Positions 33,302 through 53,114 of a DNA stretch of 64,000 bases are shown here, piece after piece. Below the pieces are notes generated by a model. The model saw only the letters and a program-made list of their open reading frames with translations. It made no database searches and was not told where the DNA came from. Both the position numbers and the translations under genes were made by a program. This DNA comes from Oscillospiraceae bacterium (GTDB lineage: Bacteria > Bacillota_A > Clostridia > Oscillospirales > Oscillospiraceae), in assembly GCA_021771675.1 (NCBI GenBank), contig JAETOP010000005.1, positions 3,629-67,628 of the forward strand, written 5' to 3'. How positions within the stretch are numbered: position 1 is the first letter of the stretch; every line of letters begins with the position of its first letter.

Positions 33302-33316
33302 AAGGGGTGTTGAAAA

Positions 33317-33481: not shown

Positions 33482-33488
33482 TGATCTG

Positions 33489-35167: not shown

Positions 35168-35185
35168 GGAAGGCGGTGAACCCCG

Positions 35186-36850: not shown

Positions 36851-36854
36851 TTGA

Positions 36855-37058: not shown

Positions 37059-37059
37059 T

Positions 37060-38376: not shown

Positions 38377-38391
38377 GGAGGTACAACCATC

Positions 38392-38868: not shown

Positions 38869-38875
38869 GCAGAGC

Positions 38876-38913
38876 GCCCCGGCCTTACTTCGGTAGGGGC
38901 CGGGGCCTTTTTT
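38876..38913 (+). terminator. terminator after tail tube gene
   Basis: CCCCGGCC and GGCCGGGG arms close an inner TTAC-TTCG-GTAG hairpin with a UUCG tetraloop; T6 follows. It may reduce transcription after the abundant sheath/tube genes. Confidence 0.85.
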
Positions 38914-38943
38914 CGTATCAAAATATAGGAGGAAAAAAAAACA

Positions 38944-39369
38944 ATGAGCCTGTCCGCTTTTTTGGCTGAAAACGCCGTTCCCGTTGAGAACATCAAGTTT
39001 GTTGCTTCTAAACGCTTCTTGGGTGAGGATGGCAACCCCATTCCTTGGGAGATCAAGACCATCACCGGCACCGAGGATGAAGCCCTTCGGAAGTCCTGTG
39101 CCAAGCGTGTTCCGGTTCCCGGCAAGAAGAACCAGTATCAGAAGGAAACCGACTATGATCTTTACCTTGGTAAGCTGGCCGTGGCTTGTACCGTGTTCCC
39201 CAATCTGAATGATAAGGAACTTCAGGACAGCTACAAGGTCATGGGCGCTGATGCCCTTCTGAAAACCATGCTGACCCCCGGCGAATATGCCGAATACCTG
39301 ACCAAGATTCAGGAAGTGTGTGGTTTTGATACCACCATGCAGGATGAGGTTGATGAAGCAAAAAACTAA
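38944..39369 (+). CDS. Tail assembly chaperone, short form
   Basis: The 141-aa protein (MSLSAFLAENAVPVENIKFVASKRFLGEDGNPIPWEIKTI, KETDYDLYLGKLAVACTVFPNLNDKELQDSYKVMGADALL) is the XkdN-type chaperone placed between tube and tape measure. It ends GCA AAA AAC TAA, where the A AAA AAC heptamer is a canonical -1 slippery site. A long form with the extension at 39366-39563 is expected. Confidence 0.88.
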   Translation: MSLSAFLAENAVPVENIKFVASKRFLGEDGNPIPWEIKTITGTEDEALRKSCAKRVPVPGKKNQYQKETDYDLYLGKLAVACTVFPNLNDKELQDSYKVMGADALLKTMLTPGEYAEYLTKIQEVCGFDTTMQDEVDEAKN

Positions 39370-39563
39370 TCTGTGAAGGTGATGGTGAAGCGAACATTGC
39401 TTACTATTGCCTTCACGAACTTCATTTGACACCTTCCGCCTTTTATGCTTTGCCCCGCCGTGAACGGGCCTTCATTATTGCGGCCATTGATGTTCGGGTG
39501 GAAGCCGAAAAGAAGAAGCAGAAGGAAATTGAACGAAAACAGCGCCGGGGCCGCCACCATTAA
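39366..39563 (+). other. -1 frameshift extension of the tail assembly chaperone
   Basis: After a -1 slip at 39360-39366 the frame reads 65 more codons (LICEGDGEANIAYYCLHELH.., ending QRRGRHH) to TAA 39561-39563; it has no good start of its own and fills the gap before the tape measure gene. A 7-bp stem (GTGAAGG 39373-39379, CCTTCAC 39410-39416) starts 6 nt after the slippery site. Both tail chaperone forms by -1 frameshift are an established feature of long-tailed phages. Confidence 0.88.
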
Positions 39564-39602
39564 GGCCCCGGCTTCTATTCTCCAAGAAAGGTGGTGATCC
39601 CT

Positions 39603-41735
39603 GTGGGAAATATCCGGGCCGCTATTGCCCTTTATGATGGTGTTACCAGCCCCCTTCAGAGTATGCACAAGGCGATGGGGGTTGTGCTGAACACCTTTGA
39701 AGCCATGCAACAGGCTTCCGGTAGAGCCGTTGACACGGCGGCAATCCGGGAAGCCCGTGAAGAATGGGCGAGAGCGGGAACCGCCTTTGATACCATTGAA
39801 GGAAACATCAGGAACGCCAACAACGAACAGCAGAATTTCAACAATTCCATCCGTGGGGGTAGCAATTCCGCCAACGGGCTTCTGTCCATCATCAAGAAAG
39901 TTGCCATTGCCGCTGGCGGTATTGCCGGGATCAATAAGGCGCTGAATATTTCGGATGAATTGGCAAGCACCAAGGCCCGATTGAATTTGCTTGTGGATGA
40001 TGGCGGTTCCGTTGAAGCCTTGGAACAGAAGATCATGGCTTCCGCCCAGCGTTCCCGATCCGTTTATTTTGACACAGCTTCCGCCGTTGCGAAACTTGGC
40101 CTGAACGCTGGTAACGCCTTCGATGGCAATATGGATCAGGTCATTGCCTTCATGGAACAGGTGAACAAGCAGTTCGTTATTGGCGGCGCTACGGCCCAAG
40201 AACAGAGCAACGCCATGATCCAGCTTACACAGGCAATGGCGGCGGGTGCGCTTCGTGGTGAAGAACTAAATTCCATTCTGGATGGTGCGCCGGGTATCGC
40301 AAGAGCCATTGAAAAATATATGGGCATTGCGGAAGGTTCCATCAAGACGGTTGCACAGGAAGGCAAGGTAACGGCTGAAGTGGTGAAGAACGCCATGTTT
40401 GCTATGGCGGACGAAACCAACGCAAAGTTCGATTCCATGCCCAAGACTTGGGCGCAGATTTGGGCCGGGATGAAGAATCAGGCCCTTTCCATGTTTGCCC
40501 CGATCTTGACCAAGATCAACCAGATTGCTAACAGCACCAAGTTCCAGCAAGTCACCACAGCCCTGATCAATGGGCTTGCCGGGGTTGCCAATATCGCTTC
40601 TTCGGTGCTGGATATTCTGATTTCCATTTCTTCTGTGATCGTTGATAATTGGAGTTGGATTCAGCCTATTATCATGGGCATTGTGGCCGCTATGCTGATC
40701 TATAACGGTGTGGCGTTGGCAACGAATATCATCATGGGTATTCAGGCAACCGCCAAGGCCGTTCATGCGGCGGCAACCGCTATGGAAGCGGGAGCCACTT
40801 TCACGGCTACTGTGGCCCAGCAGGGCCTAAATGCGGCGCTTTTGGCTTGCCCCCTTACATGGATTATCCTTCTGATTATCGCCGTAATTGCGGCAATCTA
40901 TGCGGCGTGTGCGGCAGTTGCCAAGTTCACCGGAATTGCAAATAGCGGCTTCGGTGTGATTTGTGGCGGAATCATGGTGGTAATTGCCTTCTTCAAAAAC
41001 CTTGGCCTGTCCGTGGCAAATATCGCCTTGGGTATCTGGAACGCTTTGGGGGCCTGTGCTTCCAACATCGGAACGGCCTTCCACAATGTCATTTCCAATG
41101 TTCAGGGTTGGTTTTACAACCTTCTTTCCACAGCCCTTACCGTTGTGGCCGGTATCTGTGAAGCCCTGAACAAGTTGCCCTTTGTCGAGTTTGATTATTC
41201 CGGTATCACCAGCAAAGCAAGCGAATATGCGGCTAAATCCGCTGAAGCCTATGGCAATGTAGAGGAATACAAGAGCGTTGCCGATGCCTTCAATGAAGGA
41301 ATGTCCACCTTTGACACCTTCCAAGATGGTTGGGCCGCTGATGCCTTTGCTTCCGGTGCCGCTTGGGGTGATGGCGTGGCCGATAAGGTTTCCGGTATGT
41401 TTGATTTTTCCGCCTTAGATTCTATGGGGGCTGATTCTTTGGATGCCTTCAACCTTGGCAATGATCTTGATAGCATTTACGGGAACACCGGCGATATTGC
41501 AAACAACACAGCGGCCACCGCTGATGCCTTGGATATTGCTGAAGAAGATTTGGCCTATCTTCGTGACATTGCGGAGCGTGAAGCAATCAACCGGTTCACT
41601 ACCGCTGAAATCAAGGTTGAACAGCACAATGAAAACCACATTTCCAAAGATGCTGATTTGGATGGGATCATGGATGCTTGGGCCAATGACTTTGCTGAAA
41701 AGCTGGAAGTTTCTGAAGAAGGGGTGCATGAGTAA
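39603..41735 (+). CDS. Tape measure protein
   Basis: AAAGGTGG is 9 nt before GTG 39603 (710 aa). The N-terminal third has the tape-measure domain (AQRSRSVYFDTASAVAKLGLNAGNAF, AQEQSNAMIQLTQAMAAGALRGEELNSI..PGIARAIEKYMG). The middle has several hydrophobic helices (ILLIIAVIAAIYAACAAVAKF), and the C-terminal is Ala/Asp/Gly-rich. It sets tail length and is ejected at infection; length fits a tail of roughly 100 nm by the usual rule of 0.15 nm per residue. Confidence 0.92.
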   Translation: MGNIRAAIALYDGVTSPLQSMHKAMGVVLNTFEAMQQASGRAVDTAAIREAREEWARAGTAFDTIEGNIRNANNEQQNFNNSIRGGSNSANGLLSIIKKVAIAAGGIAGINKALNISDELASTKARLNLLVDDGGSVEALEQKIMASAQRSRSVYFDTASAVAKLGLNAGNAFDGNMDQVIAFMEQVNKQFVIGGATAQEQSNAMIQLTQAMAAGALRGEELNSILDGAPGIARAIEKYMGIAEGSIKTVAQEGKVTAEVVKNAMFAMADETNAKFDSMPKTWAQIWAGMKNQALSMFAPILTKINQIANSTKFQQVTTALINGLAGVANIASSVLDILISISSVIVDNWSWIQPIIMGIVAAMLIYNGVALATNIIMGIQATAKAVHAAATAMEAGATFTATVAQQGLNAALLACPLTWIILLIIAVIAAIYAACAAVAKFTGIANSGFGVICGGIMVVIAFFKNLGLSVANIALGIWNALGACASNIGTAFHNVISNVQGWFYNLLSTALTVVAGICEALNKLPFVEFDYSGITSKASEYAAKSAEAYGNVEEYKSVADAFNEGMSTFDTFQDGWAADAFASGAAWGDGVADKVSGMFDFSALDSMGADSLDAFNLGNDLDSIYGNTGDIANNTAATADALDIAEEDLAYLRDIAEREAINRFTTAEIKVEQHNENHISKDADLDGIMDAWANDFAEKLEVSEEGVHE

Positions 41736-42406
41736 TGGCGTATAAACTGTATATGGCGGGAACGCTTATGCCCATCACCCCTTCCAAGGTGACGGTAAAG
41801 ATCAATAACCAGAACAAAACCATGACCCTGATCAACGGGGAAGAAATCAACATTCTGAAGGCCGCTGGCCTTTCGGATGTGTCCTTTGAATTGGTTCTTC
41901 CCCAAGTGTCCTATCCCTTCAGCAACGGTGGAGCGCAAAGCGCCGCCTATTACCTGTCCTTGTTTGAACGGCTGAAGGTGAGCAAGACCCCGTTCCAATT
42001 CATTCTGAACCGGCAGAAGCCCGGTGGCGGGATGTTCCATTACACCAATTTGACTGTTGGCCTTGAAACCTATGAAATCACCGATGATGCCGGTGAAGGC
42101 TTTGATGTGAAGGTGAAGATCAACCTGAAACAGTACAGAGCCTATGGCACCAAGACCGTGACCGTGCAACCGGCCAAGACTTCCAGGGGAACCGCCACCG
42201 CAACGGTTAAGGCGGCACCCCGGCCCACCACAACGGCCCCGAAAGCCGCCACCTATACGGTGAAATCTGGTGATTGCCTTTGGAACATTGCCAAGAAGCA
42301 GTTGGGCAACGGGGCCGATTACACGAAAATCTATAATCTGAACAAGGACAAAATCAAGAACCCGAACCTGATCTATCCCGGTCAGGTTCTTACTTTGCCT
42401 TCCTGA
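41735..42406 (+). CDS. LysM-containing baseplate protein (XkdP-like)
   Basis: The 223-aa protein has an N-terminal domain of XkdP type (KLYMAGTLMPITPSKVTVKINNQNKTMTLINGEEINIL, YYLSLFERLKVSKTPFQFIL), a Thr/Ala/Pro linker and a C-terminal LysM (YTVKSGDCLWNIAKKQLG..YNLNKDKIKNPNLIYPGQVLTLP, residues 172-222). It binds peptidoglycan under the baseplate. It overlaps the tape gene by one base. Confidence 0.9.
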   Translation: MAYKLYMAGTLMPITPSKVTVKINNQNKTMTLINGEEINILKAAGLSDVSFELVLPQVSYPFSNGGAQSAAYYLSLFERLKVSKTPFQFILNRQKPGGGMFHYTNLTVGLETYEITDDAGEGFDVKVKINLKQYRAYGTKTVTVQPAKTSRGTATATVKAAPRPTTTAPKAATYTVKSGDCLWNIAKKQLGNGADYTKIYNLNKDKIKNPNLIYPGQVLTLPS

Positions 42407-42421
42407 AAGGGGTGATTCCGT

Positions 42422-43381
42422 TTGGCAGTTGAATTGTTCATCCAGCATAACAGCACCATCCAATTCCCCGTTGTCAAGGAAGGCGCACGGCTGACCTTGG
42501 AGCGCAAGGGAACCCCCGGCAAGTTGGAGTTCACCGTTGTCAAGGGGCCGGGGCTGAACTTTGCTGAAGGTGATCCGGTGAAGCTGACTGTGAACGGAAC
42601 CGCCATGTTCTATGGGTTTGTGTTCAAGAAAAAGCGTGACAAGGGCGGCACCATTGATGTTGTGGCCTATGATCAGTTGCGTTATTTGAAGAATAAGGAC
42701 ACCATCACGGAAGAAGGGCTGAAGGCTTCTGACCTTCTGAAGCGCATTGCAACAGATTTCCGGTTGAACCTTGGCACGGTGGAAGATACCGGTTATACCC
42801 TTGAAACCATCGTGGAAGAAAACCAAACCCTGTTTGATATGATCCAGAGCGCCCTTGATGAAACCCTGATGAATACCAAACAGCTTTATGTTCTATATGA
42901 TGATGCCGGGAAGCTGACCCTGAAGAACATCAATACCATGAAGCTGAACCTTCTGATCGATGAAGAAACCGGGGAAAACTTCAGCTATGAATCCAGTATT
43001 GATGAACAGACCTATAACAAGATTAAGCTGGCCTATAACAATGAAAAAACCGGTAAGCGGGAATTGTTCATTGCACAGGACGGGGCGAAAATGAACCAAT
43101 GGGGTGTTCTTCAATATTTTGAAGAAGTTCAGACCAAAACGGGCGCTTCCGCCAAGGCGGATGCCCTGTTGAAGCTGTACGATCAGAAAACCCGCAAGCT
43201 GACCATTCAGAACGCTTTCGGTGATGTGCGGGTTCGTGCTGGAAGCGCCGTGGTGGTGGCCCTGAACCTTGGCGATATTGTCACCAACAATTACATGGTG
43301 GTGAACAAAGTCACTCATACCTTCAGGGGTGATGAACACATGATGGAACTTGACCTGATCGGGGGTGAATTTATTGCCTAA
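42422..43381 (+). CDS. Baseplate hub protein (XkdQ-like)
   Basis: TTG 42422 after AAAGGGGTGATT starts a 319-aa protein with hub features (RLTLERKGTPGKLEFTVVKGPGLNFAEGDPVKLTVNG, FYGFVFKKKRDKGGTIDVVAYDQLRYLKNKDT). This XkdQ/YqbQ family is the counterpart of T4 gp27 and gpD. Confidence 0.88.
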   Translation: MAVELFIQHNSTIQFPVVKEGARLTLERKGTPGKLEFTVVKGPGLNFAEGDPVKLTVNGTAMFYGFVFKKKRDKGGTIDVVAYDQLRYLKNKDTITEEGLKASDLLKRIATDFRLNLGTVEDTGYTLETIVEENQTLFDMIQSALDETLMNTKQLYVLYDDAGKLTLKNINTMKLNLLIDEETGENFSYESSIDEQTYNKIKLAYNNEKTGKRELFIAQDGAKMNQWGVLQYFEEVQTKTGASAKADALLKLYDQKTRKLTIQNAFGDVRVRAGSAVVVALNLGDIVTNNYMVVNKVTHTFRGDEHMMELDLIGGEFIA

Positions 43382-43754
43382 TCCTGTTGAAGTGGTGAAA
43401 CGGGCGGCGGTGGAAGCTGTGGAAGCCGGGAAACCGGTGAACATCCTGTTTGGAACCGTTCTTTCCGCTTCGCCCTTGAAAATTCAGGTGGATCAGAAAT
43501 CCATCTACACTTCCAAAATGCTGATTCTGACCCGGAATGTGACTGATTTTGAAGTTGATATGACGGTGAACCACAGCACCGAGGACAAGGGCGGCGGTTC
43601 TGGTGCGGCGGCTTATGAAGCCCACAAACACGCCTATGTTGGCAAGAAAACCTTCAAGGTTCACAACGCTTTGAAGGCCGGTGAAAAGGTGCTTCTGATC
43701 CGGGTTCAGCAAGGAAAGAAATTCGTGGTCATTGACCGAGTAAAGGGGGCTTGA
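43374..43754 (+). CDS. DUF2577 baseplate protein (XkdR-like)
   Basis: TTG 43374 (PNPVEVVKRAAVEAVEAGKPVNILFGTVLS) is favoured by the GGGGGTG upstream; GTG 43365 also fits. The 126-aa protein has the DUF2577 OB-like core (PLKIQVDQKSIYTSKMLILTRNVTDF) and an EAHKHAYVG loop. It overlaps the hub gene by 8 bp. Confidence 0.85.
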   Translation: MPNPVEVVKRAAVEAVEAGKPVNILFGTVLSASPLKIQVDQKSIYTSKMLILTRNVTDFEVDMTVNHSTEDKGGGSGAAAYEAHKHAYVGKKTFKVHNALKAGEKVLLIRVQQGKKFVVIDRVKGA

Positions 43755-43756
43755 TG

Positions 43757-44158
43757 ATGATTCCGCAAGTGCAGGATGATATTAAACAGGATTTCACCAT
43801 TGAAACCCTTCCAAGCCGTACTTTCAGGATGAACCACAACAATCTGACCATCATCGGCACCATTGATGAAATCCAAGCTGTGGAACAGGCGGTTTTTCTG
43901 ATCCTGAACACAGAACGCTATGAATGGTTGATTCATTCTTGGGATTATGGGGTTGAACTTCATAATCTGATCGGGAAAGATGTGGAATACTGTATTCCCG
44001 AAATTGAACGCCGGGTTCGTGAAGCCTTGCTTCAGGATGATAGGATCACGGCGGTTCAGAACTTTGAATTTACGGTGAACAAAAAGAAAGTGCTGACTAC
44101 CTTCACGGTGGTCAGCATTTTTGGTGAAATCAATGCAGAATTGGGGGTTGAAATCTGA
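43757..44158 (+). CDS. DUF2634 baseplate wedge protein (XkdS-like)
   Basis: AAAGGGGG is 7 nt before ATG 43757. The protein (133 aa) matches DUF2634/gp25-like: LPSRTFRMNHNNLTIIGTIDEIQAVEQAVFLILNTERYEWLIHSWDYGVELHNLIG. It forms part of the baseplate wedge. It overlaps the next gene by one base. Confidence 0.88.
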   Translation: MIPQVQDDIKQDFTIETLPSRTFRMNHNNLTIIGTIDEIQAVEQAVFLILNTERYEWLIHSWDYGVELHNLIGKDVEYCIPEIERRVREALLQDDRITAVQNFEFTVNKKKVLTTFTVVSIFGEINAELGVEI

Positions 44159-45390
44159 TGTATGAAGCACAGACCTATGAAGAAATCCTTTCCCGGATGC
44201 TTCAGAAGGCGCTTTCCATCAATGGCAATTTGGACACCCGTGAAGGTTCGTTGGTTTGGTGCGGTGATGCCCCCGCCGCCGTGGAATTGCAGAACCTTTA
44301 TATTGCCCTTGATACGGTGCTGAATGAAACCTTTGCGGACACCGCAACCCGCCCTTATCTCATTTTGAGGGCGGCAGAAAGGGGCCTGAAACCGCAACCG
44401 GCAAGCCCCGCCGTGTTGCAGTTGAGCATTACACCAACCACCTTGCACCTTCCCATGAACACCCGCTTTTCCATCGGGGAACTGAACTATTATGTTTCGG
44501 CTGACCGTGGAAGCGGCAAATATGAAATCACCTGTGAAACCGCTGGTGAAGCCGGTAATGATTACACCGGAACGGTGATTCCCATTGAATATGTGGACGG
44601 GCTTGAAACCTGTTCCATTTCCGCCGTGGTGATCCCCGGTGAGGATGAAGAAGATACCGAGGTTTTCAGACAGCGTTACATGGATAGCCTAAACGCCCAA
44701 GCCTTCGGCGGCAACCGTGCGGATTATCTGGAAAAGGTGAACGCCATTCCCGGCGTTGGCGGTGTGAAGGTATATCGGGTTTGGAACAGCGATTTGAACC
44801 CGGCCAAGCTGATCCCGCCCACGGGAACCGACACTTGGATCAGCGGCCTTTCCGGTGTGTCCGAGGAAATCAAGGCGTGGCTGGATGCCGTGTATGTGGC
44901 GGGAGCCAATAGCAAGCTGACTGTGGGCGGAACCGTGAAGCTGGTGATCATCAACAGTTCCTTCAAGAAGCCTTCGGAAACCCTTGTGGATCAGGTGCAG
45001 ACAGCAGTTGACCCCCTTCAGAACGCTGGTGAAGGTGTGGGCATTGCCCCCATCGGCCATGTGGTGAGGGTTGAAGGTGTGGGTGAAGATACCATCAACC
45101 TTTCCTTCGATTTGTACTATCAGCGGGAATGGAGTTGGGATGATGTTTCCGCCTATGTCACGGAAGCAATCAACGGTTACTTCTTGGAACTGGCCCAAAG
45201 TTGGGCAGACCAGAATGAAGCCCTTGTGGTTCGTATCAGTCAGGTGGAAAGCCGCCTGTTGGGGATCACCGGTATTCTGGATATTGCCAACACCAAAATC
45301 AACGGTGAAGCGGCGAACTGTACCCTGACCCTTGACCACATCCCGGTTTTGGGAACCATTGAGCCGGGAACCATCGTGATCAACGGATAA
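44158..45390 (+). CDS. Baseplate J-like protein (XkdT)
   Basis: The 410-aa protein is a baseplate J/gp47 member (LQNLYIALDTVLNETFADTATRPYLILRAAERGLKP, GEDEEDTEVFRQRYMDSLNAQAFGGNRADYLEKVNAIPGVGGVKVY). It builds the wedge ring with the DUF2634 and DUF2313 proteins at either side. Confidence 0.92.
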   Translation: MYEAQTYEEILSRMLQKALSINGNLDTREGSLVWCGDAPAAVELQNLYIALDTVLNETFADTATRPYLILRAAERGLKPQPASPAVLQLSITPTTLHLPMNTRFSIGELNYYVSADRGSGKYEITCETAGEAGNDYTGTVIPIEYVDGLETCSISAVVIPGEDEEDTEVFRQRYMDSLNAQAFGGNRADYLEKVNAIPGVGGVKVYRVWNSDLNPAKLIPPTGTDTWISGLSGVSEEIKAWLDAVYVAGANSKLTVGGTVKLVIINSSFKKPSETLVDQVQTAVDPLQNAGEGVGIAPIGHVVRVEGVGEDTINLSFDLYYQREWSWDDVSAYVTEAINGYFLELAQSWADQNEALVVRISQVESRLLGITGILDIANTKINGEAANCTLTLDHIPVLGTIEPGTIVING

Positions 45391-45403
45391 GGGGGCCGGG
45401 AGC

Positions 45404-45955
45404 ATGGAACGCAAACTGATTGATTATCTTCCCTATGTCATTCGTGATTATGCGGAGTTTCAGGGGATCATGGGGAGCGAACAGCCGGAAATTGAAAAGG
45501 CGTGGAACACCACGGATGATCTTCTTGATAACCAGTTCATTCCCACCGCTGGAAACATGGGCCTTTCCCGATGGGAAAAGATTTTGGGGATCACCCCCAA
45601 AGGCACGGACAGTCTTGAAGATCGCCGGTTCCGTATTCTGACCCGGATCAATGAAGAACTTCCGTACACCTTGCCCCAGCTTCGGAACATCCTTGAAACG
45701 CTGTGCGGGAAGGGAAACTATTCCGCTGATGTGGAAGAAGGCACCTATCAACTTCTTGTGAAAATCGGGTTGGCCGCAAAGAACAACTTCAATGATGTTG
45801 AATCTTTGCTGAACCGGGTTGTTCCCCAAAACATGGTTGTGACCTTGCTTCAGCTTTATAACACCCATGCGGAACTTGGGCGGTTTACCCATGCCCAGCT
45901 TGCCGCCTATACCCATAATCAGTTGAGAAACGAGGTTTTGAAGAATGGCGAATAA
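45404..45955 (+). CDS. DUF2313 baseplate protein (XkdU-like)
   Basis: The 183-aa protein matches DUF2313 (tail protein I-like): LIDYLPYVIRDYAEFQGIMGSEQPEIEKAWNTTDDLLDNQFI, GLSRWEKILGI, SLEDRRFRILTRINEELPYTLPQLRNIL. It overlaps the tail-fibre gene by 11 bp. It should link fibre to baseplate. Confidence 0.9.
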   Translation: MERKLIDYLPYVIRDYAEFQGIMGSEQPEIEKAWNTTDDLLDNQFIPTAGNMGLSRWEKILGITPKGTDSLEDRRFRILTRINEELPYTLPQLRNILETLCGKGNYSADVEEGTYQLLVKIGLAAKNNFNDVESLLNRVVPQNMVVTLLQLYNTHAELGRFTHAQLAAYTHNQLRNEVLKNGE

Positions 45956-47795
45956 AACAACCAACTACAAGCTGACTAAACCCCTTGAATCTGAATTTTA
46001 TGATGTAGGGGTTCAGAATGAAAACATGGATAAGATTGATACCCAAATGAAGGCCAATGCGGATGCCATTGAAGCCCTTCAGGAAGGTCAATCCGGGAAG
46101 GCTGATCTGGTGGGCGGCAAGGTTCCCGCCGAACAGCTTCCCAACATGAACTATGATCCCAAAGGTACGGCCCAAAACAAGGTGAGCGAACACAACCTTG
46201 ATCAGACCGCCCACCCGTATCTGTTGAACCAGATCGGAACCTGTGTGGAAGCCGCACAGAACGCACAGGATGCCGCAAATGCGGCCTTGGATGCTGTGTC
46301 CGGTATCGTCTATACCATCAATGTTCTTCCTTCGCAGAATGGCACCCTGACCTATAACGGACAGGCCCAAAGCCCTTCTTGGAACGCTTATAACCCCGAT
46401 GCGCTGACCTTGGGCGGCGTGACTACCGGCACCAATGCGGGAACTTACACGGCCACTTTCACGCCGAAAGGGAAGTATAAGTGGGCAGACGGCACACAGA
46501 CCGCCAAGGAAGTGACTTGGACGATCAACGCCGCCACCATGACGATCCCCACGCAGAACAACAGCCTTACTTATACCGGTTCGGCCCAAAGCCCCACTTG
46601 GAACAACTATGACAGCGGGAAAATGACGCTTGGAGGAACTACCAGCGGCACGAACGCCGGTTCCTACAATGCCACCTTCACGCCGAAAACGAACTACAAG
46701 TGGGCCGATGGAAGCACCGGGGCCAAAACGGTTGCTTGGAGCATTGCCAAGGCCGCTGGTAGTTTGTCTTTGAATAAGACTTCCATCAAACTGACCGCCG
46801 CAAAGACCACGGACACCATCACCGTGACAAGAGCCGGTAACGGCACAATCACGGCCACTTCCAGCGCCCCCACGGTGGCTTCTGTGAGTGTTTCCGGTTC
46901 GGTGGTAACTGTTACCGCCAAGACCAAAGGAAGCGCTACAATCACCGTCAGCGTGGGCGCTGGCACCAACCACACGGCCCCGGCCAATAAGACCTGTTCC
47001 GTTGAAGTGACATTGCCCACCAAGGTTCTGAACGATAACAGTTGGGCAACCATCCGGGAAGTCAGTTCCGCAGGTTTGGGGGCCAACTATTGGGCCGTTG
47101 GTGATGTGAAATCCATCGTTTTGAATGGCACCGTGAGGAATTACACTTTCAGCAACTTGACCGTGAACGCCTTTATTTTGGGCTTCAACCACAATTCCGC
47201 CAAGGAAGGTGCGAACAAGATTCACTTCCAGATCGGGAAGATCGGTTCCACGGCAGTTGCTTTGTGTGATAGCAATTATAACAACACCGGTGATGGTTTC
47301 CGCATGAATACCAGTCAGACGAACAACGGCGGTTGGAACGCTTCACACATGAGAAAAACCGTATTGGGCAATAGTAACACCCCCACAAGCCCGTTGGCGA
47401 ATAGCTTGATGGCGGCGCTTCCCGCCGATTTGAGGGCGGTTATGCAACCCGTGACCAAGTACACAGATAATACCGCCAACGGTGGCGGCAATGTTCAGAA
47501 TTATGTAACGGCCACCACCGATTACTTGTTCTTGCTTGCTGAATTTGAAGTGTTCGGAACAAGAAGCTATGCAAATAGCTATGAACAGAATTATCAGGCA
47601 CAATACGATTACTACAAAGCCGGTAATAGTAGAGTAGCCTATAATCATTCCGCCGTGTCCACGGCGGTGTGGTGGTGGCTTCGTTCCCCTTATTACGGCA
47701 GCGGCCGTAGTTTCCAGAATGTCAACACGGATGGCAACGGCAGCGGTAGCTATGCCTATTACTGTGCTGGTGTGCGCCCCGGCTTTGCCGCCTAA
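45945..47795 (+). CDS. Tail fibre with DGR variable C-terminus
   Basis: The 616-aa protein has an N-terminal baseplate-attachment part with XkdV-type repeats (TNYKLTKPLESEFYDVGVQNENMDKID). Two Ig-like repeats of about 75 residues follow (NGTLTYNGQAQSP.., NSLTYTGSAQSP.., residues 130-275) and a Big_2-like domain (residues 275-355). The last 250 residues are a DUF6273-like / C-type-lectin-like ligand-binding domain ending in WWWLRSPYYGSG..YYCAGVRPGFAA. The codons for this end are the variable repeat (47663-47786). This is the display protein diversified by the retroelement and presumably the receptor binder. Confidence 0.93.
   Translation: MANKTTNYKLTKPLESEFYDVGVQNENMDKIDTQMKANADAIEALQEGQSGKADLVGGKVPAEQLPNMNYDPKGTAQNKVSEHNLDQTAHPYLLNQIGTCVEAAQNAQDAANAALDAVSGIVYTINVLPSQNGTLTYNGQAQSPSWNAYNPDALTLGGVTTGTNAGTYTATFTPKGKYKWADGTQTAKEVTWTINAATMTIPTQNNSLTYTGSAQSPTWNNYDSGKMTLGGTTSGTNAGSYNATFTPKTNYKWADGSTGAKTVAWSIAKAAGSLSLNKTSIKLTAAKTTDTITVTRAGNGTITATSSAPTVASVSVSGSVVTVTAKTKGSATITVSVGAGTNHTAPANKTCSVEVTLPTKVLNDNSWATIREVSSAGLGANYWAVGDVKSIVLNGTVRNYTFSNLTVNAFILGFNHNSAKEGANKIHFQIGKIGSTAVALCDSNYNNTGDGFRMNTSQTNNGGWNASHMRKTVLGNSNTPTSPLANSLMAALPADLRAVMQPVTKYTDNTANGGGNVQNYVTATTDYLFLLAEFEVFGTRSYANSYEQNYQAQYDYYKAGNSRVAYNHSAVSTAVWWWLRSPYYGSGRSFQNVNTDGNGSGSYAYYCAGVRPGFAA
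47663..47786 (+). repeat. DGR variable repeat (VR)
   Basis: A 124-bp region aligns without gaps to the template repeat 1,050 bp downstream. 16 differences all lie where the template has A (two clusters of codons at 47691-47710 and 47729-47741), and two more, a G and an A in the template, lie at the 3' end (47777, 47783), as expected for the IMH boundary. It encodes the last 41 or so residues of the fibre. Confidence 0.95.
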
Positions 47796-47823
47796 TCCCC
47801 CGCAGGATGATCCCGCCCCCATC

Positions 47824-47843
47824 CCGCCGCCGAAAGGCGGCGG
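47824..47843 (+). other. hairpin downstream of VR (GAAA tetraloop)
   Basis: Stem CCGCCGCC with GGCGGCGG closes a GAAA loop, 37 bp after the VR. In the Bordetella phage DGR a hairpin/cruciform of 8 bp with a GRNA loop after VR is needed for target recognition; this one has the same shape. A second hairpin (GGTTCC/GGAACC) follows at 47842-47858. Confidence 0.7.
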
Positions 47844-47876
47844 TTCCGGGAGGGAACCCCAAACAAAAATAATAAT

Positions 47877-47909
47877 GGCGGCGTAAGCCGCCCGACGATT
47901 TTTTTTTTG
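47877..47909 (+). terminator. terminator after tail fibre gene
   Basis: GGCGGC-GTAA-GCCGCC (47877-47892) followed shortly by a run of at least ten T (47899 on). It separates the late structural transcript from the DGR accessory genes. Confidence 0.85.
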
Positions 47910-47979
47910 AAAATGGGGGTTTTCCGGTAAAGTGCTATCATTTGACTGTCATTTGAGTGCATACACCGGACAAAATCAG

Positions 47980-48022
47980 CCATACAATATCCATAAGCCT
48001 GTTTGAAGGGGGTATTGTATGG
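47980..48022 (+). promoter_or_regulatory. inverted repeat over the start of the RHH gene
   Basis: CCATACAATA (47980-47989) and TATTGTATGG (48013-48022) are perfect 10-bp inverted repeats. The second arm contains the ATG (48019) and the loop contains the ribosome site AAGGGGG. It could be an operator for the RHH protein or an RNA hairpin that hides the start codon. Confidence 0.6.
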
Positions 48023-48207
48023 CAACAAACAAGCGTGTTTTCACCTTGCGCCTATCGGATGAAGTCTTTGACAAGATCGGGGCGCTTGCAACCCGTGAAC
48101 ACCGATCTATCACCAATTACATTGAATTTGTTCTTCTGAAACACTTGGAAGAAGTGGAAAAGGCGGAAGGAACGATCAATGTCGATAATTCACCCAAAGG
48201 GGTATAA
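48019..48207 (+). CDS. Ribbon-helix-helix protein in the DGR locus
   Basis: The 62-aa protein (KRVFTLRLSDEVFDKIGALATREHRSITNYIEFVLLKHLEEVEK) is an RHH/Arc-type DNA-binding protein: beta strand VFTLRLS followed by two helices. No toxin gene follows, so an antitoxin role is unlikely. It lies between the tail fibre and the DGR accessory gene and may regulate the retroelement. A perfect inverted repeat covers its start codon. Confidence 0.8.
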   Translation: MATNKRVFTLRLSDEVFDKIGALATREHRSITNYIEFVLLKHLEEVEKAEGTINVDNSPKGV

Positions 48208-48213
48208 CTGAAA

Positions 48214-48366
48214 ATGTCTGTCCTGAAGCAAAAGAGAACCACAAGCAAGGCCGAGTTCATCAACACGGCCAATCAGATTTATGTTGAAACCCCTGAACTT
48301 CCTGACCCGTCTTTCGGCCCGGTATTCCCGTCTGATTGCGGAGCCGGTGTCAAAGCTGGCCGGTGA
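48214..48366 (+). other. frame-shifted 5' part of the avd gene
   Basis: AAAGGGG is 11 nt before ATG 48214, which opens MSVLKQKRTTSKAEFINTAN..IYVET and then, after the C4 run 48290-48293, runs out of family sequence to TGA 48364-48366. Moving to the +1 frame at ACC CCT continues smoothly into the Avd helix LNFLTRLSARYSRL. So the 5' end and the main body of avd lie in different frames. Confidence 0.65.
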
Positions 48367-48676
48367 GATCATCGACCATGCGGAGAAGGCTAACAGTATC
48401 TTTCCTTCGGACAACCAGCGCATTGAAATGAGGAAGGCCCATCTTCTTGAAGCACGGGCTTCCCTGATGGCGCTGGATGTTCGCTTGACCCATGTTTACC
48501 TGATTCTGAACCAGAACCCGGAAGGGCCCTTTACCACTTCCAAGGGGAACCCGGTGAAGTCACAGGATGCAATGGAAAAGCTGGATAAGATGGCCCAAAA
48601 CTTGGGTGAACTGATCGACAAAGAAAACGAACTTCTGAAAGGAGCAATCAAAAATGTAACAGCAAAACAGAAATAA
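48281..48676 (+). CDS. avd: DGR accessory protein Avd-like
   Basis: The open frame 48281-48676 (131 aa) is a helical bundle protein: LNFLTRLSARYSRLIAEPVSKLAGEIIDHAEKANSI, KAHLLEARASLMALDVRLTHVYLIL, AMEKLDKMAQNLGELIDKENELL. Length, basic charge and placement just upstream of the template repeat fit the Avd family, whose pentamer binds the reverse transcriptase and template RNA. No ribosome site precedes ATG 48281; the natural start is probably ATG 48214 in another frame, so the gene needs +1 frameshifting or is damaged by one extra C. Confidence 0.75.
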   Translation: MLKPLNFLTRLSARYSRLIAEPVSKLAGEIIDHAEKANSIFPSDNQRIEMRKAHLLEARASLMALDVRLTHVYLILNQNPEGPFTTSKGNPVKSQDAMEKLDKMAQNLGELIDKENELLKGAIKNVTAKQK

Positions 48677-48712
48677 TTTCCCATTAGGTGTGCAACTGAT
48701 AATGAGCCTGTT

Positions 48713-48836
48713 GGCGGTGTGGTGGTGGCTTCGTTCCCCTAATTACAACAACAACAATAATTTCCAGAATGTCAACACGGATGGCAACAACAACAATAAC
48801 AATGCCTATTACTGTGCTGGTGTGCGGCCCGGATTT
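48713..48836 (+). repeat. DGR template repeat (TR)
   Basis: The template copy lies between avd and the reverse transcriptase and is not in a gene. The diversified codons are AAC or AAT (two Asn runs at 48741-48760 and 48785-48802), which is the optimal design for adenine mutagenesis because AAY codons can give many residues but no stop codon. The 3' end (GTGCGGCCCGGA) differs from VR at two positions. Confidence 0.95.
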
Positions 48837-49076
48837 TGCAAATATACACGGTCAAATGTAGTAACAGAAGGCGAACGGCTTTTCAGGTGAAAGACGACCG
48901 ATGTAAAAGGAGTTGTACTTCCTTGGGTTTCAATCCCTAAAACTGCCCTTTGATGCCCTTACACGGACGCTTCTTGCATGGTGGGTGAATGTGTCATAGC
49001 CCATTTCATGTGTAAGGACAAAGCAGATTAGATGGCACCCTACAACGCATTTGTACGAGGGGCGAATACTTTTATT
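48837..49076 (+). ncRNA. spacer of the DGR template RNA
   Basis: The 240 bp between TR and the reverse transcriptase start contain no credible gene. In studied DGRs this spacer is part of the template RNA and primes cDNA synthesis. The TR-spacer RNA is inferred from this organisation; no promoter is clear. Confidence 0.55.
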
Positions 49077-50249
49077 ATGACAAGCCAAGAACGGCATGAA
49101 GCGAGGTTCCAGCGCCGCAGAGCAAAGCGGCAGGAACGGAAACAGGCCCGGTGTGACAGCCTTGGGCCGATGAATAAAGTCTTTTCCTATCGGAAGATGT
49201 TCTTCTACGGGAAAAAGTGCTGTAACGGGGTGCGGTGGAAGCAGAGTGTTCAGAACTTTGAAGGCCACCTTTTTTCCGGTACGGCAACACGGCGGCGAAT
49301 GGTGTTGGAACAGAATTGGAAACCAAAAGCCTGTTCCCATTTCACCCTTCGGGAACGGGGCAAAATCCGCCCGATAGATGCCCCGCACATTACGGATCGA
49401 CAAATCCATAAAACCCTTTGCAATGAAGTTCTAATCCCGCTGTATTCACCTTCGATGATCTATGACAACGGGGCAAGTCAGCGGGGAAAGGGCCTTCATT
49501 GGCAGTTCAAGCGGATCAAACAACAGCTTGGATGGCATTACCGGCGCTATGGCCGTGAAGGTGCCGTGTTGCTGTTGGATTTGAAGGGGTTCTTCCCAAA
49601 TGCTTCCCACGCCCTGTTATACCAGCGGCACCGGGAATTGATTTTGAACCCTGAACTTCAAAACTTGGCTGATACGATCATTCGGTTTTCCCCATGCCCA
49701 ACACCGGGCCGGGGCTTGCCTTTGGGTGTGGAGCCTTCCCAACAGGAAATGGTGGCCTTGCCCAGCAAGATTGACCAATGGATCAAGTGTCAGGCCCATG
49801 TTCATTGCGCCGGTCATTACATGGATGATTACTATGCTTTCTTCCCCACGGTGGATGAAGCAAAATTGATGGGCCATGAAATTGTACGGCGTTTTGAAGC
49901 CGCTGGAATCCGAGTGAACAAACGCAAGTGTAAGGTGATCCCGCTTACAAAGCCATTCCGGTTCTGCAAGGCCCGGTTCACACTTACCGAAACCGGCAAG
50001 ATCAAGGTGAATGGAAGCCGGGATGGAGTGAAACGGGCAAGGCGAAAACTGAAGCTGTTTCACAGGGAGTTCAAAGAGGGAAAACGATCCTTCTTTGACA
50101 TAGAACAATACATGGAGTGCCAAAGCGCCTATTACCGGAACTTCAACGATCATGGCCGGTTGCTACGGTTGCGGCGGCTTTACCATGCAATCTTTTTCGG
50201 AGGTGGACAATGTTTAGAATCATCAAAGCCGGGGCCGGTATCGGCCTGA
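49077..50249 (+). CDS. DGR reverse transcriptase
   Basis: ATG 49077 (MTSQERHEARFQRRRAKRQERK) follows GAGGGGCGA; the earlier ATG 49032 has no ribosome site. The 390-aa protein has RT motifs in order: KIRPIDAPHITDRQIHKTL, AVLLLDLKGFFPN (motif A with catalytic Asp), LPLGVEPSQ near residue 214, and HYMDDYYAF with the YxDD catalytic pair near residue 247. The LGxxxSQ in place of QGxxxSP is the hallmark of DGR enzymes and correlates with A-specific infidelity. Frame ends 40 bp into the next gene. It copies TR RNA to cDNA that replaces VR. Confidence 0.95.
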   Translation: MTSQERHEARFQRRRAKRQERKQARCDSLGPMNKVFSYRKMFFYGKKCCNGVRWKQSVQNFEGHLFSGTATRRRMVLEQNWKPKACSHFTLRERGKIRPIDAPHITDRQIHKTLCNEVLIPLYSPSMIYDNGASQRGKGLHWQFKRIKQQLGWHYRRYGREGAVLLLDLKGFFPNASHALLYQRHRELILNPELQNLADTIIRFSPCPTPGRGLPLGVEPSQQEMVALPSKIDQWIKCQAHVHCAGHYMDDYYAFFPTVDEAKLMGHEIVRRFEAAGIRVNKRKCKVIPLTKPFRFCKARFTLTETGKIKVNGSRDGVKRARRKLKLFHREFKEGKRSFFDIEQYMECQSAYYRNFNDHGRLLRLRRLYHAIFFGGGQCLESSKPGPVSA

Positions 50250-50827
50250 CCGAGAACCTGAACTACATCAAAAAAGCCGAAAATGGTTGCTACATCCTTT
50301 GCCCGGAGCATGACGCTTCGGGCATTGTTTTTGAGGGTGTGGCTTACCATTTGTTGGGCCGTGCCGCTATGGACGAACTGGAAACCGTGAGTTTGGAGGA
50401 AACGGACGCAGGAACCGAGATCACCAAAGCCACAGAAGCCGGTGGAATCGTCTTTGTCACCTTGGCGGAAGCCGGGAGCATTGACGCTGAAACGGCGGCG
50501 GAACACGCTGATTTGTTCGCTGAATGGGCCTATCCTATCGCCTACAAAACCGGCCAAATCCGCCGTTTTGGTGGGGTGCTTTACAAGTGCGTTCAGGATC
50601 ACACTTCCCAAGCTGACTGGACACCGGACACCGCTTCCAGCCTGTGGAGCCTGACCGCCAATCCCGCTGAAGAATGGCCCGCTTGGGCACAGCCGGTGGG
50701 GGCGCATGATGCCTATTCCAGCGGGGCGAAAGTTGCCCACAATGAAAAGCATTGGGTTTCCACCGTGGATAACAATGTTTGGGAACCGGGTGTGTATGGT
50801 TGGGAGGAAGTAACCGATGCAGTATAA
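50210..50827 (+). CDS. Carbohydrate-binding (CBM5/12-like) phage protein
   Basis: CGGAGGTGG precedes ATG 50210 (205 aa), 40 bp inside the RT gene end. The N-terminal half (FRIIKAGAGIGLTENLNYIKKAENGCYILC) is a known tail-associated segment. The C-terminal half has two CBM5/12-type units (YKTGQIRRFGGVLYKCVQDHTSQADWTPDTASSLW and SGAKVAHNEKHWVSTVDNNVWEPGVYGWEEV). It may bind cell-surface sugar at the tail tip. Confidence 0.75.
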   Translation: MFRIIKAGAGIGLTENLNYIKKAENGCYILCPEHDASGIVFEGVAYHLLGRAAMDELETVSLEETDAGTEITKATEAGGIVFVTLAEAGSIDAETAAEHADLFAEWAYPIAYKTGQIRRFGGVLYKCVQDHTSQADWTPDTASSLWSLTANPAEEWPAWAQPVGAHDAYSSGAKVAHNEKHWVSTVDNNVWEPGVYGWEEVTDAV

Positions 50828-51215
50828 AAATTATCTGTGCCGAAAACGGGCAAGGTTTGACGGCATTTCAGGCCAAGTGAATATTCCCTATGGAACCGCC
50901 CTGATCTGTCAGGACGGTTTTTTGATGCACCAGAACAAACCGCTTTGCGGGATCACCAGCCAAAACGCCTATGATTTCTTCAGTCAGAATGATGATGGGA
51001 TGGGCCGGGAACGGGGTGATCTGGTTGGACGCATTCTTTCCAAACTGCAAAAGCGGGATTCCGGGTATCAGGCCCGGTGGAACAAGGTTTGGGAGGATGC
51101 CCGGTGCCAAAAGTACAAGCGCCCGGAGCATGAAGATCATTGGATTTGGAACTTTGACTTCTACAATGGGCCTGTGGAGGATTTGCGCCATATCGCTGGT
51201 TTGATCGGAGCATAA
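50817..51215 (+). CDS. hypothetical late phage protein
   Basis: The 132-aa protein (MQYKNYLCRKRARFDGISGQVNIPYGTALICQDGFLMHQNKPLC) is known as a conserved hypothetical position gene in phages with this late layout, but its role is not known. It overlaps the previous gene by 11 bp and precedes the lysis genes. DHWIWNFDFYNGPVEDLRHIAGLIG forms its end. Confidence 0.6.
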   Translation: MQYKNYLCRKRARFDGISGQVNIPYGTALICQDGFLMHQNKPLCGITSQNAYDFFSQNDDGMGRERGDLVGRILSKLQKRDSGYQARWNKVWEDARCQKYKRPEHEDHWIWNFDFYNGPVEDLRHIAGLIGA

Positions 51216-51236
51216 GACAAGGGAGGAAGAATAGAA

Positions 51237-51548
51237 ATGACGGTTTATCAATGGTTGTGCTTGTTCAGCGTCCCGGCCCTGATTCTGATGATCGTGAAGT
51301 ATATGCTGAACCAGATCAAGCAGAACAGGAAGGACACGGAAGCGGTGAAATTGGGCCTTCAGGCCCTTCTCAGAAGCCAAATGATTTCAGACTATAACAA
51401 GTATTCTGAAAAAGGCTTTGCCCCTGTCTATGCACGGGATAATTTTGAAAACTGCTGGAAACAGTATCATTCTTTGGGGGCCAATGGTGTGATGGATGAT
51501 CTACATGAAAAATTCCTTGATCTTCCCACAGAAGCCCCCAACAGATGA
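51237..51548 (+). CDS. Membrane-anchored lysis-region protein
   Basis: The 103-aa protein has one N-terminal helix (YQWLCLFSVPALILMIVKYML, residues 4-24) and a cytoplasmic coiled part. It opens the lysis module and may act as an antiholin or XhlA-type partner. GGGAGGAAG precedes ATG 51237. It overlaps the next gene by 4 bp. Confidence 0.6.
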   Translation: MTVYQWLCLFSVPALILMIVKYMLNQIKQNRKDTEAVKLGLQALLRSQMISDYNKYSEKGFAPVYARDNFENCWKQYHSLGANGVMDDLHEKFLDLPTEAPNR

Positions 51549-51811
51549 AGCGGGTGCAAAAAGCCAAGCGGGAATTTTCAAAAACCATATTGATGTTCAT
51601 TGGGGCGGTTACCGTTGTGGTAACCGCTTTCACTTTAATCATGATTTGGAGAACCAATGACCTTTCCCCTTTGGCTTATTTGATCCCCGCCGTTTTTGCC
51701 GAACTTGCCACCGGAACCGGATTTTACTATTCCAAGGCCAAGGCCGAAAACCGGATCAAGTTGCGGAAGCTGTACGGCCCTGAAATCTACAATGACGCAA
51801 AAGAACCCTAA
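51545..51811 (+). CDS. Two-TM holin-like protein
   Basis: The 88-aa protein has two hydrophobic helices (TILMFIGAVTVVVTAFTLIMIW and LSPLAYLIPAVFAELATGTGFYY) with charged ends. Size and place in the lysis module suggest a holin component. No named family is recognised. Confidence 0.65.
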   Translation: MKRVQKAKREFSKTILMFIGAVTVVVTAFTLIMIWRTNDLSPLAYLIPAVFAELATGTGFYYSKAKAENRIKLRKLYGPEIYNDAKEP

Positions 51812-51838
51812 ATTACAACACAGAAAGGAAAATGAAAC

Positions 51839-52207
51839 ATGAACACCGAACAGATTATTTCTCTGATCGTGGCCCTTTTGAGCGGCCTTGCCACCTGTAT
51901 TCCTCTGGCCTATAAACTGGTGCAGTATGTCCAGAAGGCCGCACAGGAAAAGAATTGGAACGCCCTGTTGGGTTTGGTCATTGACCTGATGGAACAGGCG
52001 GAAAAGAAATTCACCGATGGTGCCACCCGTAAGGAATGGGTGATGGCTATGGTGCAGACTTCCGCCGAATACATCAATTACCCGGTGGACAGCGTAGCCC
52101 TTGGCAAACTGATTGATACCCTGTGTGATATGTCCAAGATTGTAAACTATGACGGTGCACCGGCCATTGAGCCTGAACAGGTGAAGGGAGATGGGGAAAA
52201 TGAGTAA
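51839..52207 (+). CDS. Phage holin (LL-H type)
   Basis: The 122-aa protein has one N-terminal helix (IISLIVALLSGLATCIPLAYKLV) and an amphipathic part (NWNALLGLVIDLMEQAEKKFTDGATRKEWVMAMVQ), as in Phage_holin_6 (LL-H). It overlaps the amidase by 8 bp. It forms pores to release or activate the lysin. Confidence 0.8.
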   Translation: MNTEQIISLIVALLSGLATCIPLAYKLVQYVQKAAQEKNWNALLGLVIDLMEQAEKKFTDGATRKEWVMAMVQTSAEYINYPVDSVALGKLIDTLCDMSKIVNYDGAPAIEPEQVKGDGENE

Positions 52208-53003
52208 TTCCCCGCTTGCGACCTATACCCAGATCACAAAGAATAAAACCAGCCCCCGGAACCATACCATTGACACCATCACAATTCACTGTATAGTTGG
52301 GCAATGGACAGCAAAACAGGGGTGTGATTATTTCGCCACCACAGACCGGCAATGTTCCGCCAACTATGTTGTTGGTAAGGATGGTTCCATTGGCCTTTCC
52401 GTGGATGAAAAGGATCGTTCTTGGTGTTCCAGCAACAGCGCCAATGACAACCGGGCAATCACCATTGAAGTTGCTTCTGACACCACACACCCCTATGCCG
52501 TAACGGATGCCGCCTTTGCCACCCTTCTTAATTTGGTGGAAGATATTTGCCGCCGCAACGGGATCAAGAAGCTGGTTTGGAGTACGAACAAGAATGATCG
52601 TGTGAATCACCTGAACGGGTGTAACATGACCGTTCATCGGGACTACGCAAACAAGGCTTGTCCCGGTGATTATCTTTACAACCGGCATGGAGAGATTGCC
52701 GCAGAAGTCAACAGGCGGCTTCAGGGCGCTTCTTCTGGTGGTGGGGTAGTAGTTACACCCCCGGCCACAGAAAAGCCCACAGACGGCGGCACAGGGGCCA
52801 CAGCAACGCCTTATTTGGTGCGGGTGACAATCTCTGATCTGTATATCAGAAAAGGCCCCGGCACCAACTACGGGAAGAATGGCTTCATCAAGCCGGGTGT
52901 TTACACCATCGTGGCGGAAAGCACCGGCACCGGGGCCACCAAATGGGGCAAGCTGAAAAGCGGTGCCGGTTGGATTTCCCTTGACTACGCAAAACGGGTG
53001 TGA
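52200..53003 (+). CDS. N-acetylmuramoyl-L-alanine amidase (endolysin)
   Basis: AAGGGAGAT precedes ATG 52200 (267 aa). Residues 1-175 are an Amidase_2/PGRP domain: TIDTITIHCIVGQW, SANYVVGKDGSIGLSVDEKDRSWCSS, NRAITIEVASD, and WSTNKNDRVNHLNGCNMTVHRDYANKACPG with the zinc ligands. A Gly/Thr/Pro linker leads to a C-terminal SH3 domain (TISDLYIRKGPGTNYGKNGFIKPGVYTIV..GWISLDYAKRV). No signal peptide, so holin is needed. It is the last phage gene. Confidence 0.93.
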   Translation: MSNSPLATYTQITKNKTSPRNHTIDTITIHCIVGQWTAKQGCDYFATTDRQCSANYVVGKDGSIGLSVDEKDRSWCSSNSANDNRAITIEVASDTTHPYAVTDAAFATLLNLVEDICRRNGIKKLVWSTNKNDRVNHLNGCNMTVHRDYANKACPGDYLYNRHGEIAAEVNRRLQGASSGGGVVVTPPATEKPTDGGTGATATPYLVRVTISDLYIRKGPGTNYGKNGFIKPGVYTIVAESTGTGATKWGKLKSGAGWISLDYAKRV

Positions 53004-53018
53004 TAGCGTGTTACTATG

Positions 53019-53027
53019 TTGTTACTA
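53019..53027. repeat. candidate attR core B (TTGTTACTA)
   Basis: Nine-base match to 8407-8415, directly after the amidase gene. A further GTTACTATG unit overlaps at 53010. Confidence 0.35.
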
Positions 53028-53114
53028 TCCCTTTGGGTTTCACCGGGTTCCTGTGACCTGAAAATTCAGTAAATTCAGCCCATTGGGGCCTACAAAAACT
53101 CAAAAATTCATGGT

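What the first reader, a model, noticed from the sequence alone, without database searches (positions are those of the whole stretch)
47663..50249. Complete-looking diversity-generating retroelement acting on the prophage tail fibre
A 124-bp repeat at the 3' end of the tail-fibre gene aligns without gaps to a second copy 1,050 bp downstream. I count 18 differences: 16 are inside the repeat and every one is A in the downstream copy, and two lie in the last 10 bases. The downstream copy has AAC/AAT runs. It is followed by a reverse transcriptase with YMDD and LGxxxSQ motifs, and preceded by an Avd-type gene. This is the known DGR design. The displayed residues are about 11 codons in a lectin-like C-terminal domain, so the phage can change its receptor binding.
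Basis: partly seen in the sequence, partly recalled or inferred. Interest (0 to 1): 0.95.

Follow-up and report, generated by a model that had tools for sequence, protein, structure and literature searches.

The report
Phage fibre hypermutator with split helper
A virus integrated in a bacterial chromosome carries a known type of gene-diversifying cassette that has likely rewritten the end of its predicted tail-fibre gene, while the cassette's predicted helper gene is split across two reading frames in this copy, so the cassette may no longer work here.

Summary
VR 47663-47786 and TR 48713-48836 differ at 18 of 124 sites; all 16 in the body fall on template adenines. With the reverse transcriptase (YMDD, LGxxxSQ), a GAAA hairpin after VR and Rfam RNA RT-2 after TR, this is a diversity-generating retroelement (DGR), inside a prophage whose empty site is seen in a related genome. 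Relatives show it at work: four pairs with one TR and 0 of 400 upstream bases changed differ at 70 VR sites, 69 on template A. The type is known from Faecalibacterium phages (PMC5883640, PMC11792537). In an intact relative that accessory is a predicted Avd-like four-helix bundle, although the 2018 paper detected Avd homologues only in two other phages. The diversified domain is a predicted C-type-lectin-like fold.

The parts
45945..47795 (+). DGR target: predicted tail-fibre protein, 616 aa, with a Big_2 Ig-like domain and a C-terminal DUF6273 domain
   Evidence: Pfam PF19789 E 2.3e-16, residues 454-614; phrog_37900 over full length, weaker match to a tail protein family; last 263 aa modelled at pLDDT 96.7, C-type-lectin-like matches
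47663..47786 (+). Variable repeat (VR), within the last 45 codons of the fibre gene
   Evidence: 16 of 16 body differences on template A
47771..47790 (+). IMH-like 3' end of VR (differences from TR at 47777 and 47783; then homology ends)
   Evidence: TR A against VR C at the CGGA/CCGA motif in 77 of 84 loci, the other 7 lacking that exact motif in the stretch searched
47824..47843 (+). Hairpin/cruciform CCGCCGCC[GAAA]GGCGGCGG after VR
   Evidence: perfect stem of 6 bp or more within 80 nt after VR in 69 of 84 loci, after TR in 9 of 84, shuffle expectation 7.2; 64 of the 69 have a 4-nt G..A loop, 44 fit GRNA
48019..48207 (+). Small ribbon-helix-helix (Arc/RelB-like) protein gene between VR and the accessory gene
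   Evidence: PHROG Arc-like repressor E 4.7e-6; detected in 24 of 84 loci, all with VR-TR spacing of 1031 or more
48214..48363 (+). First piece of the accessory gene (about 26 codons resemble relatives, then this frame diverges)
   Evidence: 26 of 26 residues identical in L001 and L045
48281..48676 (+). Second piece of the accessory gene, in another frame (131 aa)
   Evidence: phrog_30516 E 1.2e-75, aligned from profile position 26 of 154; 94 of 97 loci have both pieces in one frame
48713..48836 (+). Template repeat (TR) with AAC/AAT runs
48847..49083 (+). Structured RNA, Rfam RT-2 (RF03077), likely the DGR spacer part of the template RNA
   Evidence: 162.8 bits against a gathering score of 40; 26 of 26 relatives searched have it between TR and RT
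49077..50249 (+). Reverse transcriptase (YMDD, LGVEPSQ); the ATG at 49032 is also open
   Evidence: Pfam RVT_1 E 9.6e-12; phrog_1423 E 3.1e-70; PDB chain 8ub7_A, a DGR reverse transcriptase, E 2.5e-6
8358..53109 (.). Prophage (approximate ends; imperfect 11-bp repeat ATGGTATAATA / ATGGTAAAATA at the junctions)
   Evidence: genome G001 contig C105 runs through: window 5000-8357 at 63609-66960, window 53110 onward from 66950; junction letters; integrase 8452-9468 and terminase, sheath and tape measure, baseplate J

Best explanation
This is a diversity-generating retroelement in a prophage: RNA of the template repeat is likely copied by the reverse transcriptase with errors opposite adenines, and the altered copy would replace the variable repeat at the 3' end of the predicted tail-fibre gene, while the predicted helper gene is split across two frames in this copy, which would likely leave it impaired. 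Shown by the sequence: the A-only body differences, the RT, the hairpin, the IMH-like end, the RNA family next to TR, and the frame split. Shown in relatives: the same design, with VR changing at template A while TR and upstream DNA stay the same. Inferred from BPP-1: the RT-2 RNA recruits the RT and helper and primes cDNA synthesis; the hairpin raises homing; the 11 changed codons lie on the binding face of a C-type-lectin-like domain and change what the phage binds. Inferred: without a whole helper this copy is probably frozen at its present VR, unless the split is a sequencing error or is bypassed.
For: Template-A bias 16 of 16, P 3e-10. Base-blind scoring of 84 loci: 1,386 of 1,413 mismatches at template A; 49% of A changed against 0.2-0.6% of other bases. 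Four pairs with the same TR and 0 of 400 upstream differences (L033/L099, L054/L055, L058/L061, L084/L098) differ at 70 VR sites, 69 at template A; over all 15 same-TR pairs 257 of 264 VR differences are at A. RT aligns with a DGR reverse transcriptase of known structure through YMDD. Hairpin after VR in 69 of 84 loci, after TR in 9. RT-2 in the window and 26 of 26 relatives searched. Split helper: 94 of 97 loci have one frame, the window does not; avd nonsense mutations drop homing to about 1e-9 in a reconstituted BPP-1 system (PMC12875486, passages).
Against: No expression, read-level or functional data. The window VR carries 16 A changes, so homing worked at some time. The window's own assembly is not held, so the frame split may be a sequencing or assembly error; the exact split sequence is in 0 viral contigs. 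The hairpin starts 37 nt after VR, just beyond the 4-34 bp reported for other phages (PMC3240598), and 20 of 64 G..A loops in the clade do not fit GRNA. 28 of 112 sequences gave no VR/TR pair. Foldseek alone gave the accessory model no match at E 0.001.
Confidence: 0.9

Rival explanations
1. The DGR is fully working in this lysogen: the frame split is a sequencing or assembly error, or ribosomes shift frame, or another phage supplies the helper.
For: The rest of the cassette is intact and VR is heavily diversified. Close relatives L001 and L045 keep the gene in one frame. The exact window sequence at the split was found in 0 viral contigs, as an error would give.
Against: Two other loci are split as well: L034 further along the gene, and L061 by a different change with bases missing, so loss does occur, if those are not errors too. 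A conserved programmed frameshift is unlikely, because 94 of 97 loci need none. could miss near-identical records, which may be left out of the collection.
Confidence: 0.4
2. The reverse transcriptase belongs to another retroelement (group II intron, retron, antiviral RT) and the repeats are an old duplication that decayed.
For: NCBIfam's best hit is a group II intron RT model.
Against: That hit scores 45.8 bits against a cut-off of 300. A decayed duplication would not differ only at A of one copy, and TR stays fixed while VR changes in relatives.
Confidence: 0.01
3. The hairpin after VR is only a transcription terminator and has no part in homing.
For: It lies 28 nt after the fibre stop codon, as terminators do.
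Against: No T run follows it directly (next T run at 47900). A hairpin at this place recurs in 69 of 84 loci, but after TR in only 9; 64 of the 69 have a 4-nt G..A loop. The window's GAAA fits the GRNA rule tested in BPP-1 (PMC3240598, passages).
Confidence: 0.1

Closest known systems
DGRs of Faecalibacterium phages Taranis, Pioen and Roos
   Same: Same gene order (DUF6273 target, RHH gene, accessory, TR, RT; RT-2 was tested in Taranis only). About 66% DNA identity over 73-75% of the 5.4-kb query; RT 69% identical; pieces. The Taranis record notes 'DGR target'.
   Different: Accessory gene in one frame there and split here; VR differs. The rest of the phage genomes was not compared.
BPP-1 DGR of Bordetella phage (bRT, Avd, mtd)
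   Same: A-specific VR/TR, IMH, hairpin with GAAA loop, accessory upstream of TR, structured RNA between TR and RT, C-type-lectin-like target (PMC3240598 and PMC12875486, passages).
   Different: Accessory not recognisable by sequence; target is a DUF6273 protein; an extra RHH gene; helper split here.
DUF6273 targets (tentaclins and tgt2) of gut phages nd4 and nd12
   Same: DUF6273 domain diversified by a DGR and modelled as a C-type lectin fold (PMC10743442, passages).
   Different: Tentaclins have the DUF6273 domain at the N-terminus; here it is C-terminal after an Ig-like domain.
Rfam RT-2 RNA (RF03077)
   Same: Full-length match, 162.8 bits, directly after TR.
   Different: No difference found; its tie to DGRs is not stated in the passage of the one held paper that names the accession.

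Membership tests
Diversity-generating retroelement | VR and TR differing almost only at template adenines | tested here: met
   16 of 16 body differences; 1,386 of 1,413 over 84 loci
Diversity-generating retroelement | VR at the 3' end of a protein-coding gene | tested here: met
   VR ends 6 bases before the stop codon at 47793-47795
Diversity-generating retroelement | Reverse transcriptase with catalytic YxDD and the SQ motif | tested here: met
   YMDD, LGVEPSQ; 8ub7_A E 2.5e-6. That SQ marks DGR RTs is recalled
Diversity-generating retroelement | IMH/IMH* mismatches at the 3' end | tested here: met
   two end differences; TR A against VR C at the same motif in 77 of 84 loci
Diversity-generating retroelement | GC-rich hairpin with GRNA loop after VR | tested here: met
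   8-bp stem, loop GAAA, 37 nt after VR; rule from PMC3240598 gives 4-34 bp
Diversity-generating retroelement | VR changes while TR stays fixed | tested here: met
   in relatives: 15 same-TR pairs, 257 of 264 VR differences at A. Not tested for this prophage itself
Working DGR (activity, not membership) | Accessory gene whole in this copy | tested here: not met
   both pieces present but in two frames; Avd is needed in BPP-1 (PMC12875486, passages)
Working DGR (activity, not membership) | New VR variants arising from this prophage | not testable with these tools
   no reads held
Avd / S23 four-helix family | Four-helix bundle matching solved Avd | tested here: met
   [not shown]
Avd / S23 four-helix family | Sequence match to a named Avd family | tested here: not met
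   no Avd-named model among the matches of 44 members in Pfam or NCBIfam; no PDB sequence below E 0.2. So I say Avd-like by fold, not a member by sequence
Avd / S23 four-helix family | Pentamer binding RT and RNA (recalled) | not testable with these tools
   none
C-type lectin fold | Structural match of the diversified domain | tested here: met
   [not shown]
Rfam RT-2 (RF03077) | Covariance model score above gathering | tested here: met
   162.8 bits against 40

The most novel reading that the evidence does not exclude
In this clade the helper gene is a switch: frame-splitting changes turn hypermutation off in some lineages and leave a phage with a fixed, already selected fibre, while the RNA family RT-2, for which I found no stated role, is the guide and primer RNA of the whole clade.
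Probability: 0.12. Interest if true: 0.55.

Novelty: new member of a known kind. Interest (0 to 1): 0.33.

Why it matters
It ties three loose ends for a DGR clade found in gut phages. First, the 2018 Faecalibacterium paper detected Avd homologues only in Mushu and Lagaffe and suggested another small protein elsewhere, Taranis included (PMC5883640, passages); the small protein of this clade has a predicted Avd-like fold. Second, Rfam RT-2 sits where the DGR spacer RNA should be in the window and in 26 of 26 relatives searched. Third, a copy with a split helper beside many whole ones gives a natural test of whether the helper is needed in this clade. None of this changes the DGR mechanism as known.

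Tried and rejected
A conserved programmed frameshift in the accessory gene: rejected, 94 of 97 loci have one frame. A G-rich VR as a sign of altered mutagenesis: 13 of 16 changes are A>G, the highest share of the 79 loci with 8 or more changes, but P is 0.003 before correcting for 79 loci, so no claim. More VRs of the same phage from viral contigs: exact patterns gave 0, 4 and 0 stretches; 3 of the 4 lie on contigs already held and the fourth, L137, was not studied. A second VR in the window: none. Accessory relatives by sequence in Pfam, NCBIfam and PDB: only chance-level hits. Foldseek alone for the accessory: nothing at E 0.001. The target domain by sequence in PDB: nothing below E 0.3. The RT in the nearest held genome G001: not detected, and the tool warns that an empty answer without a positive control shows little. 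Literature link of RT-2 to DGRs: one search listed 0 papers, none to the point among 10 listed of 24, one (the Rfam 15 paper, where RT-2 stands in a table). The paper that described the RT motifs was not seen and is recalled only. An exact att repeat: the longest exact repeat near the two ends is 7 bp, so the 11-bp repeat is imperfect.

Loci without a VR/TR pair in my finder: 28 of 112; some are contigs cut near the RT. L004 has VR identical to TR over 120 bases and so shows no mismatch. The 84 with pairs include duplicates between collections; 65 distinct sets of 115 nt or more were used.
Full report
WHAT WAS CHECKED. The finding gives a 124-bp repeat at 47663 with a second copy 1,050 bp downstream. 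Both are there: 47663-47786 (VR) and 48713-48836 (TR), gap-free. Of 18 differences, 16 lie in the body and all 16 are A in TR; the other two lie in the last 10 bases. The chance of 16 of 16 falling on the 34 adenines among 110 body positions is 3e-10; changes fall on codon positions 1 and 2 (7 and 9), and 18 of the 34 adenines are unchanged. Eleven codons change in the body, all AAC or AAT in TR. No other place in the window, on either strand, resembles TR at more than 48% of its non-A positions.

WHERE IT LIES. The window holds a prophage. In the nearest held genome, G001, contig C105 runs through the insertion: window 5000-8357 matches 63609-66960 and window 53110 onward matches from 66950. 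The prophage is therefore about 8358-53109, with an imperfect 11-bp repeat at its ends (letters). It carries an integrase and terminase, a Mu-F-like protein, contractile sheath and tape measure and baseplate J. The RT was not detected in G001.

THE CASSETTE. In order: fibre gene 45945-47795 with Big_2 and DUF6273 domains; VR at its 3' end; hairpin 47824-47843; a small ribbon-helix-helix gene 48019-48207; the accessory gene from 48214; TR; the RNA RT-2 at 48847-49083; and the reverse transcriptase, likely from 49077, to 50249. The RT is Pfam RVT_1, and its only PDB relative at E 1e-5 or better is 8ub7_A; entries of that set are titled DGR ribonucleoprotein reverse transcriptase, from BPP-1 as I recall. 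It has YMDD and LGVEPSQ.

RELATIVES. Scans with the RT gave 24 genome loci and 80 viral-contig loci (80 is the cap, 96 encoded a relative); seven regions of phage records were added. With the window that makes 112 sequences. A VR/TR pair was found in 84 of 112. Scored without regard to base on those diagonals, 1,386 of 1,413 mismatches are at template A: 49% of adenines are changed, against 0.2-0.6% of the other bases; A>G 585, A>T 427, A>C 374.

EVIDENCE OF ACTIVITY IN THE CLADE. Fifteen pairs of loci share the same TR over the compared stretch. Their VRs differ at 257 template-A sites and 7 others. Eight pairs have 400 upstream bases held: four have 0 of 400 differences (L033/L099 with 16 VR differences, L054/L055 with 18, L084/L098 with 16, all at A; L058/L061 with 20, 19 at A); the others have 2 (L012/L058), 2 (L012/L061), 3 (L076/L077) and 16 (L105/L109) of 400. 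One pair, L085/L098, has identical VRs. L004 has VR equal to TR over 120 bases. Where two TRs differ at non-A letters, each VR follows its own TR in 3,607 of 3,630 cases over 324 overlapping pairs; since VR/TR pairs were found by similarity, this is supporting only. For the window's own near kin (L001, L045) the VRs differ, but so do their TRs.

CIS ELEMENTS. A perfect stem of 6 bp or more lies within 80 nt after VR in 69 of 84 loci, after TR in 9 of 84, with 7.2 expected from shuffles. Of the 69, 64 have a 4-nt G..A loop and 44 fit GRNA. The window's stem is 8 bp with loop GAAA. Guo et al. (PMC3240598, passages) describe 7-10 bp GC-rich stems with a GRNA loop 4-34 bp after VR in phage DGRs; here it starts 37 nt after VR. 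At the 3' end, the A of the CGGA/CCGA motif in TR is C in VR in 77 of 84 loci; the other 7 lacked that exact motif in the stretch searched. A fixed A>C at one place is the mark of an IMH boundary rather than of random mutation.

THE RNA. RT-2 (RF03077) matches full length right after TR at 162.8 bits. All 26 relatives searched have it between TR and RT (14, 12; 26 of 111 relatives held). Searching 394 genomes of the order for RT-2 gave 15 matches, 11 over the cut-off; all 15 lie beside an RT-like frame and 12 of 15 (11 of 11 over the cut-off, 1 of 4 below) have a VR/TR pair within the 3.2 kb held. Some of these look like the same strains as earlier loci. In BPP-1 the RNA between TR and RT recruits the RT-Avd complex and primes cDNA (PMC12875486, passages). 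RT-2 is thus likely the spacer RNA of this DGR clade. I found no held paper saying so; that does not show it is unpublished.

VERDICT. A real DGR in a prophage, a new member of a known kind, whose helper gene is split in this copy.

Noticed in passing
window 48019-48207: An Arc/RelB-like ribbon-helix-helix gene sits inside the DGR cassette in 24 of 84 loci; those 24 have VR-TR spacing of 1031-1119, the 60 in which it was not detected 645-924. It may regulate the cassette.
   Followed up: partly
window 56268-56456: A ~190-bp stretch just before the AddB-like gene recurs at 28 or so long places in genome G001 at 85-96% identity (which scored 40 of 180 candidates): a dispersed repeat of the host.
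   Followed up: no
window 53111-53231: A ~120-bp stretch at the right prophage junction recurs at three further places in G001 at 75-94% identity.
   Followed up: no
[not shown]
   Followed up: no
window 47691-47753: 13 of 16 VR body changes are A>G, the highest share among 79 loci (P 0.003 uncorrected).
   Followed up: partly
L004 3835-3954: VR is identical to TR over 120 bases, an undiversified state.
   Followed up: no
L011 9570-9658: Type II hammerhead ribozyme match, minus strand, 40.9 bits.
   Followed up: no
L032 439-500: The RHH gene's first 19 codons run almost directly into RT residue 76 (counted from 49077) near the start of a viral contig: a deletion or an assembly join.
   Followed up: no
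window 50117-50827: The frame after the RT overlaps its end and carries a CBM_5_12 carbohydrate-binding module.
   Followed up: no
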